A stretch of 64,000 nucleotides of DNA from Pectobacterium actinidiae (lineage in GTDB: Bacteria > Pseudomonadota > Gammaproteobacteria > Enterobacterales > Enterobacteriaceae). Shown here in pieces: positions 25,860 to 27,194 of this stretch. How positions within the stretch are numbered: position 1 is the first letter of the stretch; every line of letters begins with the position of its first letter. The notes beneath the pieces were generated by a model, which made no database searches, was not told where the DNA came from, and saw nothing but the letters and a program-made list of their open reading frames with translations. A program made the position numbers and the translations under genes. The DNA is taken from the NCBI RefSeq assembly GCF_000803315.1, contig NZ_JRMH01000001.1, forward strand, positions 3,720,001-3,784,000. The letters run 5' to 3'.

Positions 25860-27194
25860 ATGGAAGAAAACAGGCTGACACAGTTCATCGTGTCCTACGT
25901 GAATAATCGAAAGCAGGCCAAGCTGGATGCGATCGATAAAGAGGCAGAGAAGAAACGCGTGACGCTCAGCGGTGAAGCATTAGCCACTGAGGAATTGGAG
26001 CAGGCCGAGAAGCGGCGAGAGATCGAGAAAAAACATGAGGTTCGCGCTTGGTTAACCGATGCCGCCAGCCGTGCTGGACAAATCAGCCTGGTCACTCACG
26101 CGTTGAAATTTACCCACAGCGATGCCAAAGGCAGCAGCATCTTTAGCGCAGAAACGGTAGCTGACGCCAAAACGCTTTCGACCGCAACACTGGCATAGCC
26201 CGCCATAGACGCAGTCGGCAACGCGGCTGCCCTTGATGTCGCCAAGTTGCTACAGACCGAACACAAAGGTAATTCGCTGGTCGCCGCCTTACAGCGCGGC
26301 GACCACAGTGCATTAGAAGCGCTGGCAGAAAGCCCAGAACAGCTCGCACAGTGGCTGGCAGGCTTTCAGCAGGTCTTTACCAATCGTCAGCCCAGTTCGC
26401 ATAAGCTAGCCAAGCAGATCTATTTCCCAACAGAAAACGGTGAATACCATCTGTTAAGCCCGCTTTACTCTTCTTCACTCGCCCATGCGCTCTATCAGCG
26501 GATTAATGCCGTGCGCTTTGGTGATGAAGCCAAAGCGATTCGTCAGGCGCAAAAAGCGAATCAGTGGCACGATCAACTCTCCATCAGCTACCCCTATCTG
26601 GCAGTACAGAATATGGGGGGCACCAAGCCACAAAATATTTCCTCACTCAATAGCAGCCGTAGCGGCCGTTCCTATTTGCTCAGCAGTGCCCCACCGCAGT
26701 GGAACAGCATTGAAAAACCACCACAGCAGCATGACTCTATTTTCCGTCCACGCGGCGAGGTCGACTATCACACCCGAGCGACCTTAGCGCAGATGCAGCG
26801 CTTTCTGCTTAGCGTCAAAGAGGTGGAAAACAATCGCGACATTCGCCAACAGCGCCTGCGTTATCTCGATCAGTTGATCGATCAGCTCTTCTTTTATGTC
26901 ACCAGTGTGCAAAATCTGCCTTCCGGCTGGAGCGCAGAATCTGAACTGAAACGCGCCCAGCAGCTATGGCTCGATCCCTATCGTGCAGAAGAAGATACGG
27001 TTTTCCGCCGCGAGCGTGAAGCGGGTGACTGGCAAAAAGCCGTAGCCTACGATTTTGGCCGCTGGCTGAACCGCCGACTCAAGCATGAAGCGTTGATCTT
27101 CGGCGAAGTCGAACGCCGCGAATGGTCTAGCGCTGCGCTATTCAAGCGCCGGATGCGTGAAATGGAAAGCGCACTGAAAGAGGATCTGGCATGA
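25860..27194 (+). pseudogene. csy1: csy1 (cas8f) interrupted by an in-frame TAG
   Basis: Csy1 is the large subunit of the type I-F surveillance complex and is needed for PAM recognition. The gene opens with MEENRLTQFIVSYVNNRKQAKLD behind a strong AGGAGGAGG site. Codon 113 (26196-26198) is TAG, between STATLA and PAIDAVGN. The same frame then continues without another stop through the rest of a normal Csy1 to RMREMESALKEDLA, for 444 codons in all, which is the usual length. No frameshift or deletion is involved; a single base change from a glutamine or lysine codon explains it. The 112-residue fragment cannot be a working Csy1. A genuine mutation, amber suppression or a sequencing error are the alternatives. 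Confidence 0.88.

What the first reader, a model, noticed from the sequence alone, without database searches (positions are those of the whole stretch)
26196..26198. In-frame TAG in csy1 of an otherwise complete type I-F locus
The csy1 frame is intact on both sides of a single TAG at codon 113 (A-TAG-P, between STATLA and PAIDAVGN), with normal start, length and end. All other cas genes keep their catalytic residues, and both arrays keep identical repeats and full leaders. Without Csy1 the complex cannot read the PAM, so interference and priming should be lost while Cas1/Cas2-3 and Cas6f could still work. This may be a recent inactivation, perhaps selected by a self-targeting spacer or useful foreign DNA. 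Because csy2 starts on the csy1 stop codon, polarity on csy2 is also possible.
Basis: partly seen in the sequence, partly recalled or inferred. Interest (0 to 1): 0.8.

Follow-up and report, generated by a model that had tools for sequence, protein, structure and literature searches.

The report
Stop codon breaks one CRISPR gene
In a Pectobacterium genome a single TAG stop codon cuts the csy1 gene of an otherwise complete type I-F CRISPR locus to a quarter of its length, which is predicted to switch the immune system off; it is most likely a recent, ordinary gene loss.

Summary
csy1 (25860-27194) has 112 open codons, TAG at 26196-26198 (codon 113), then 331 open codons to the normal end. It is the only csy1 found in the genome; the other five cas genes are full length. 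Of 25 Pectobacterium species genomes 14 carry csy1; only this one has an in-frame stop in it. The stop removes the parts that read the PAM and bind target DNA, so interference and priming are predicted to be lost. No rescue was found: none of 75 detected tRNA genes has a CUA anticodon, the RF1 gene is open, there is no second Csy1 and no Cas8e, csy2 has ordinary length, and no restart site convinces. Past the stop the gene evolves like intact copies, so the lesion is young (or a sequencing error, or leaky). Eleven of 59 spacers match Pectobacterium phage ZF40 (3 exactly), so the system probably once worked. Similar lesions occur elsewhere: 2 of 56 genomes with near full-length csy1 in a family-wide draw carry a stop. 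An ordinary natural CRISPR loss; low interest.

The parts
26196..26198 (+). in-frame TAG, codon 113 of csy1
25860..26195 (+). csy1 5' part (112 codons), the predicted translated fragment
   Evidence: ATG preceded by AGGAGGAGGA; matches Csy1 model positions 1-57 of 385
26199..27194 (+). csy1 3' part, 331 open codons and the normal stop, predicted untranslated or only reached by leak
   Evidence: matches Csy1 model positions 60-385; holds the residues aligned to K247 and N250 of P. aeruginosa Csy1
21563..22543 (+). cas1 (type I-F), intact
   Evidence: TIGR03637, 522 bits; no internal stop
22540..25836 (+). cas2-3 (type I-F Cas3), intact
   Evidence: TIGR02562, 1367 bits over 1-1110 of 1110
27191..28123 (+). 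csy2 (cas5f), intact, 310 aa; start overlaps the csy1 stop (ATGA)
   Evidence: TIGR02565; aligned end to end with relatives
28140..29147 (+). csy3 (cas7f), intact
   Evidence: TIGR02566
29157..29711 (+). csy4/cas6f, intact
   Evidence: TIGR02563
19138..21268 (-). CRISPR array 1: 36 identical repeats, 35 spacers, leader end next to cas1
29841..31309 (+). CRISPR array 2: 25 repeats, 24 spacers, leader end next to cas6f

Best explanation
A TAG stop codon interrupts csy1 at codon 113 in an otherwise complete type I-F CRISPR locus, and this probably recent point mutation most likely leaves the cell without a working Csy1 (Cas8f), so that the Csy complex would no longer find and destroy targeted DNA. 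Shown: the stop, its position, the intact rest of the operon and arrays, the single csy1 match in the genome, and a normal pattern of substitutions past the stop. Inferred: translation ends at codon 113; the 112-residue piece is useless because it lacks everything from the conserved GNAAALDV motif on, including the residues aligned to K247 and N250 of P. aeruginosa Csy1; interference and primed acquisition are lost while Cas6f would still cut crRNAs. The likeliest cause is chance or a cost of CRISPR not visible in this genome; no self-target was found.
For: One csy1 in the genome, with one TAG. 0 of the other 13 Pectobacterium species genomes with csy1 have an in-frame stop in it. The other five cas genes are open and full length. 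No CUA anticodon among 75 tRNA genes; RF1 gene without internal stops, 575.7 bits. No Cas8e; csy2 keeps the I-F1 length of 310 aa. The 11 in-frame ATG/GTG/TTG codons after the TAG have 2-4 of 6 Shine-Dalgarno matches; the first three, at codons 130, 218 and 252, have 3, against a full match before csy1 itself. PMC9001735 (passages) reports that K247E and N250D in Cas8f abolish dsDNA binding; both aligned residues lie beyond the stop. Youth: dN/dS of the part after the stop is 0.080-0.143 against four of the 12 relatives aligned, and 0.086-0.144 among the six pairs of those four. Own-branch changes of 9 nonsynonymous to 18 synonymous (G006), or 8 to 19 with another outgroup, make more than about 30% of that branch without constraint improbable; a third comparison (G011, 10 to 14) allows about 40%.
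Against: No reads, RNA, protein or phage test were available. Purifying selection past the stop fits leaky read-through or a sequencing error as well as a recent loss. cas1 and cas2-3 show somewhat more nonsynonymous change on this branch than on the sister branch (7:15 against 1:15; 46:90 against 20:57), which could hint at an older relaxation, but neither difference is significant (Fisher P 0.11 and 0.28). Only one genome per species was searched, so sister strains are unknown. The tRNA search scored 150 of 192 first-look candidates.
Confidence: 0.74

Rival explanations
1. The TAG is a sequencing, assembly or culture artefact and the natural gene is intact.
For: The gene is under normal constraint on both sides. 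Public assemblies of this genus can be bad: G022, whose region contains that of the named record CP091064 (Pectobacterium sp. PL152) letter for letter over 5.5 kb, has frameshifts or stops in cas1, cas2-3, csy1, csy3 and cas6f.
Against: This assembly shows no other lesion in about 8 kb of cas genes and is rated 100% complete and 0.36% contaminated. Of 20 other window ORFs scanned, 15 match a family nearly end to end, 1 in part and 4 none. A lone substitution that makes a stop is an unusual error (judgement).
Confidence: 0.13
2. The stop is leaky: near-cognate tRNAs read some of the UAG codons, and a little full-length Csy1 keeps a weak CRISPR immunity going.
For: The sequence past the stop is under purifying selection. 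The base after the TAG is C, a context recalled as poor for termination. One Csy1 per complex (recalled) would make a small amount count.
Against: No CUA tRNA found; RF1 gene open. 3 of 40 window ORFs of at least 200 aa end in TAG (one antisense ORF of the 41 was left out), so TAG seems to serve as a stop. Selection before a recent mutation explains the pattern equally well.
Confidence: 0.08
3. The loss was selected because a spacer targeted the cell's own DNA or a useful resident element.
For: In P. atrosepticum, mutations in the cas operon relieve the toxicity of chromosomal targeting (PMC3630108, passages).
Against: Both arrays searched against the whole genome with E up to 10 gave nothing outside the arrays above 35.6 bits. 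In the 37 loci of these weak matches, the best fit of any spacer outside the arrays has 8 mismatches and no CC beside it. No relative of ZF40 gp30 or gp31 was found (no positive control).
Confidence: 0.04
4. Csy1 is made in two pieces that work together, the second from an internal start.
For: The 3' part is one open frame of 331 codons.
Against: No good ribosome site near the stop; the first candidates are a TTG and a GTG with 3 of 6 Shine-Dalgarno matches. Among the best 120 of 3377 homologues, the only ones listed, the shortest is 410 aa, although lengths near 331 were eligible.
Confidence: 0.01

Closest known systems
Type I-F1 CRISPR-Cas of Pectobacterium (P. atrosepticum SCRI1043)
   Same: Genes cas1, cas2-3, csy1, csy2, csy3, cas6f; 28-base repeats and 32-33-base spacers here; the 3' part of csy1 is 92% identical to the SCRI1043 protein, which equals PDB 9irf chain J.
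   Different: csy1 is cut by a TAG; two arrays found here, three in P. atrosepticum (PMC3630108, passages).
Type I-F locus without csy1 in Acinetobacter baumannii CriePir307
   Same: Csy1 missing while Cas1, Cas3/Cas2, Csy2, Csy3, Cas6 remain (PMC7918744, passages).
   Different: There an internal deletion, here a single stop codon; that paper says that none of its cas genes had premature stops.
P. carotovorum subsp. brasiliense SX309
   Same: Interrupted I-F operon in the same genus (PMC6963963, passages).
   Different: There a 49-gene phage-like region between csy3 and csy2.
Type I-F2 (minimal, without Csy1)
   Same: An I-F system can lack Csy1 (PMC7918744, passage); the title of PMC4605320 reports interference by a minimal type I system (listing).
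   Different: There Csy2 is said to have an additional domain; here csy2 has the ordinary I-F1 length.

Membership tests
Type I-F1 CRISPR-Cas locus | cas1f and cas2-3f present and full length | tested here: met
   TIGR03637 and TIGR02562 far above cut-off
Type I-F1 CRISPR-Cas locus | csy2, csy3, cas6f present and full length | tested here: met
   TIGR02565, TIGR02566, TIGR02563
Type I-F1 CRISPR-Cas locus | intact csy1 (cas8f) | tested here: not met
   TAG at codon 113; the only match in the genome
Type I-F1 CRISPR-Cas locus | arrays of 28-base I-F repeats, spacers from foreign DNA with CC PAM | tested here: met
   59 spacers; 11 match phage ZF40 with up to 5 mismatches, 6 of the 11 have CC directly 5'
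Recent pseudogene (csy1) | single lesion, no further decay | tested here: met
Recent pseudogene (csy1) | no product or function in the cell | not testable with these tools
   needs protein or phage assays
Recoded or suppressed amber gene | amber-decoding tRNA or release factor 1 defect | tested here: not met
   75 tRNA genes, none CUA, 150 of 192 candidates scored; prfA open
Type I-F2 (Csy1-free) | enlarged Cas5f (Csy2) replacing Csy1 | tested here: not met
   csy2 is 310 aa and aligns end to end with I-F1 relatives

The most novel reading that the evidence does not exclude
The amber codon is a dimmer rather than a break: leaky reading of UAG-C keeps a few complete Csy complexes per cell, giving weak immunity at low autoimmune cost, and this explains why the rest of the gene and both arrays remain in good order.
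Probability: 0.06. Interest if true: 0.55.

Novelty: new member of a known kind. Interest (0 to 1): 0.17.

Why it matters
If true, this strain is a natural csy1 knock-out with full arrays and adaptation genes. It is useful as a matched case for asking how fast arrays and cas genes decay once interference is gone, and as a caution against counting a locus as active because its genes are present. It changes no view of how type I-F systems work.

Tried and rejected
Self-targeting: both arrays against the whole genome, all 59 spacers against the window with the arrays masked, up to 7 mismatches (nothing), and all 59 against the 37 weak-match loci. Outside the four loci that hold array repeats, the best fits have 8 mismatches (two loci). 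Suppressor tRNA and RF1: nothing. Second Cas8: one Csy1, no Cse1 (its control rang in 2 of 14 genomes). Resident anti-CRISPR: ZF40 gp30 and gp31, which I recall as Aca2 and AcrIF8, have no match in the genome; without a positive genome this shows little, and other anti-CRISPRs were not searched.

Plasmid searches with the arrays were swamped by I-F repeats of other arrays and say nothing on spacer targets. The leader-nearest spacer of each array has no exact match in IMG/VR; the other 57 were not tried there. A second broken csy1 (G022, frameshift) looked at first like a parallel loss; lesions in four other cas genes make it either a decayed locus or, as I think, a poor assembly. A difference in cas1 and cas2-3 between this branch and its sister was not significant.

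Sister strains could not be reached: the genome collections hold one genome per species. Literature: the searches (15, 3, 7 and 0 papers) list no title that reports a natural csy1 nonsense mutation in Pectobacterium. Of these papers I read passages of five; two of them, on A. baumannii and P. aeruginosa isolates, say that none of their cas genes had premature stops. I read none in whole. P. aeruginosa N111 as a PAM contact is recalled; a search for it found no paper.

Full report
What is there. The window lies in a 4.92 Mb genome in three contigs. Its csy1 is closest to Pectobacterium: the 3' part is 95% identical to P. brasiliense and P. versatile, and the best DNA stretches of the P. versatile record L040 and of the unnamed G006 are about 94% identical. 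The species itself was not settled. The type I-F locus runs array 1 (minus strand), cas1, cas2-3, csy1, csy2, csy3, cas6f, array 2 (plus strand). It is the only lesion seen in the operon, in the only csy1 found in the genome.

How unusual it is. Among 25 Pectobacterium species genomes (this one included), 14 have csy1; 1 of 14 has an in-frame stop (this one) and 1 of 14 (G022) has a frameshift within csy1, in a region with lesions in four other cas genes. In an even draw of 392 genomes of the family, 60 match Csy1. Four genomes of one genus match only in part, as a short variant, and are left out of the next count. Of the other 56 genomes (57 near full-length copies) 2 carry a stop: this one (TAG) and G309 (TAA), whose other cas genes are also open. 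Frameshifts would not show in this count. Control gene csy3 in the same draw: 63 genomes, 59 near full length with no stop, 4 broken or truncated, two of them with stops. Single-gene damage to I-F loci is therefore uncommon but ordinary, and not special to csy1.

Consequence. The stop falls just before the conserved GNAAALDV stretch. The alignment to P. aeruginosa Csy1 places K247 and N250 in the part beyond the stop; [quoted passage not shown] A 112-residue piece cannot supply these. Loss of interference and priming is an inference from that. Cas6f processing should go on. [quoted passage not shown] atrosepticum (PMC5059440, passages). csy2 starts on the csy1 stop but has its own GAGGA upstream, so its loss by polarity is possible, not certain.

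Rescue routes tested. No tRNA with a CUA anticodon among 75 found; prfA without internal stops; 3 of 40 window ORFs of at least 200 aa end in TAG; no convincing internal start; no I-F2-like enlarged csy2; no Cas8e.

Age. Past the stop, dN/dS against four relatives (of 12 aligned) is 0.080-0.143, the same as among those four (0.086-0.144); before the stop 0.179-0.264 against 0.169-0.264. On this branch 9 nonsynonymous and 18 synonymous changes were counted against G006, 8 and 19 with another outgroup, 10 and 14 against G011. With neutral evolution for 30% of the branch or more the first two counts would be improbable (P below 0.03); the third allows about 40%. The lesion is young, unless it is an error or leaky. 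cas1 and cas2-3 have more nonsynonymous change on this branch than on the sister branch, not significantly (Fisher P 0.11 and 0.28).

Past activity and cause. Of 59 spacers, 11 match Pectobacterium phage ZF40 with at most 5 mismatches, 3 exactly; in 20 sets of letter-shuffled spacers none did. Six of the 11 have CC directly 5' (chance about 1e-5). So the arrays were filled from ZF40-like phages among others. I found no self-target and so no visible reason for the loss. Chance or an invisible cost is the default.

Verdict. A real and probably recent natural inactivation of csy1; a known kind of event, already seen as a deletion of csy1 in Acinetobacter (PMC7918744, passages) and as an insertion in the operon of another Pectobacterium (PMC6963963, passages).

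Noticed in passing
L158 (G022) and L034 (CP091064, Pectobacterium sp. PL152): The same sequence over the stretch compared. csy1 is frameshifted near codon 49, and cas1, cas2-3, csy3 and cas6f also carry frameshifts or stops, which looks like a poor assembly rather than biology.
   Followed up: partly
L160 (G309): csy1 carries a TAA late in the gene while the other cas genes are open: an independent single-gene lesion in another genus.
   Followed up: partly
19138-21268 and 29841-31309: 11 of 59 spacers match phage ZF40, in head, tail, methyltransferase and other genes, 8 of them with 2-5 mismatches. Spacer A2_s20 is close to Klebsiella phage Kp4866-3, and A2_s12 to Cronobacter, Salmonella and Erwinia phages.
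   Followed up: partly
20427-20518: Neighbouring spacers A1_s13 and A1_s14 share a 19-base stretch in shifted register, as if taken from overlapping places of one target.
   Followed up: no
21563-25836: cas1 and cas2-3 show more nonsynonymous change on this branch than on the sister branch, not significantly.
   Followed up: partly
17984-18850 (-): 288-aa protein beside array 1 with no Pfam or NCBIfam match, next to a DUF1240 protein at 17587-18012.
   Followed up: no
genomes G175, G287, G360, G422 (genus g132): Csy1 matches only about model positions 2-163 plus a short second piece in all four, a shared short Csy1 variant.
   Followed up: no
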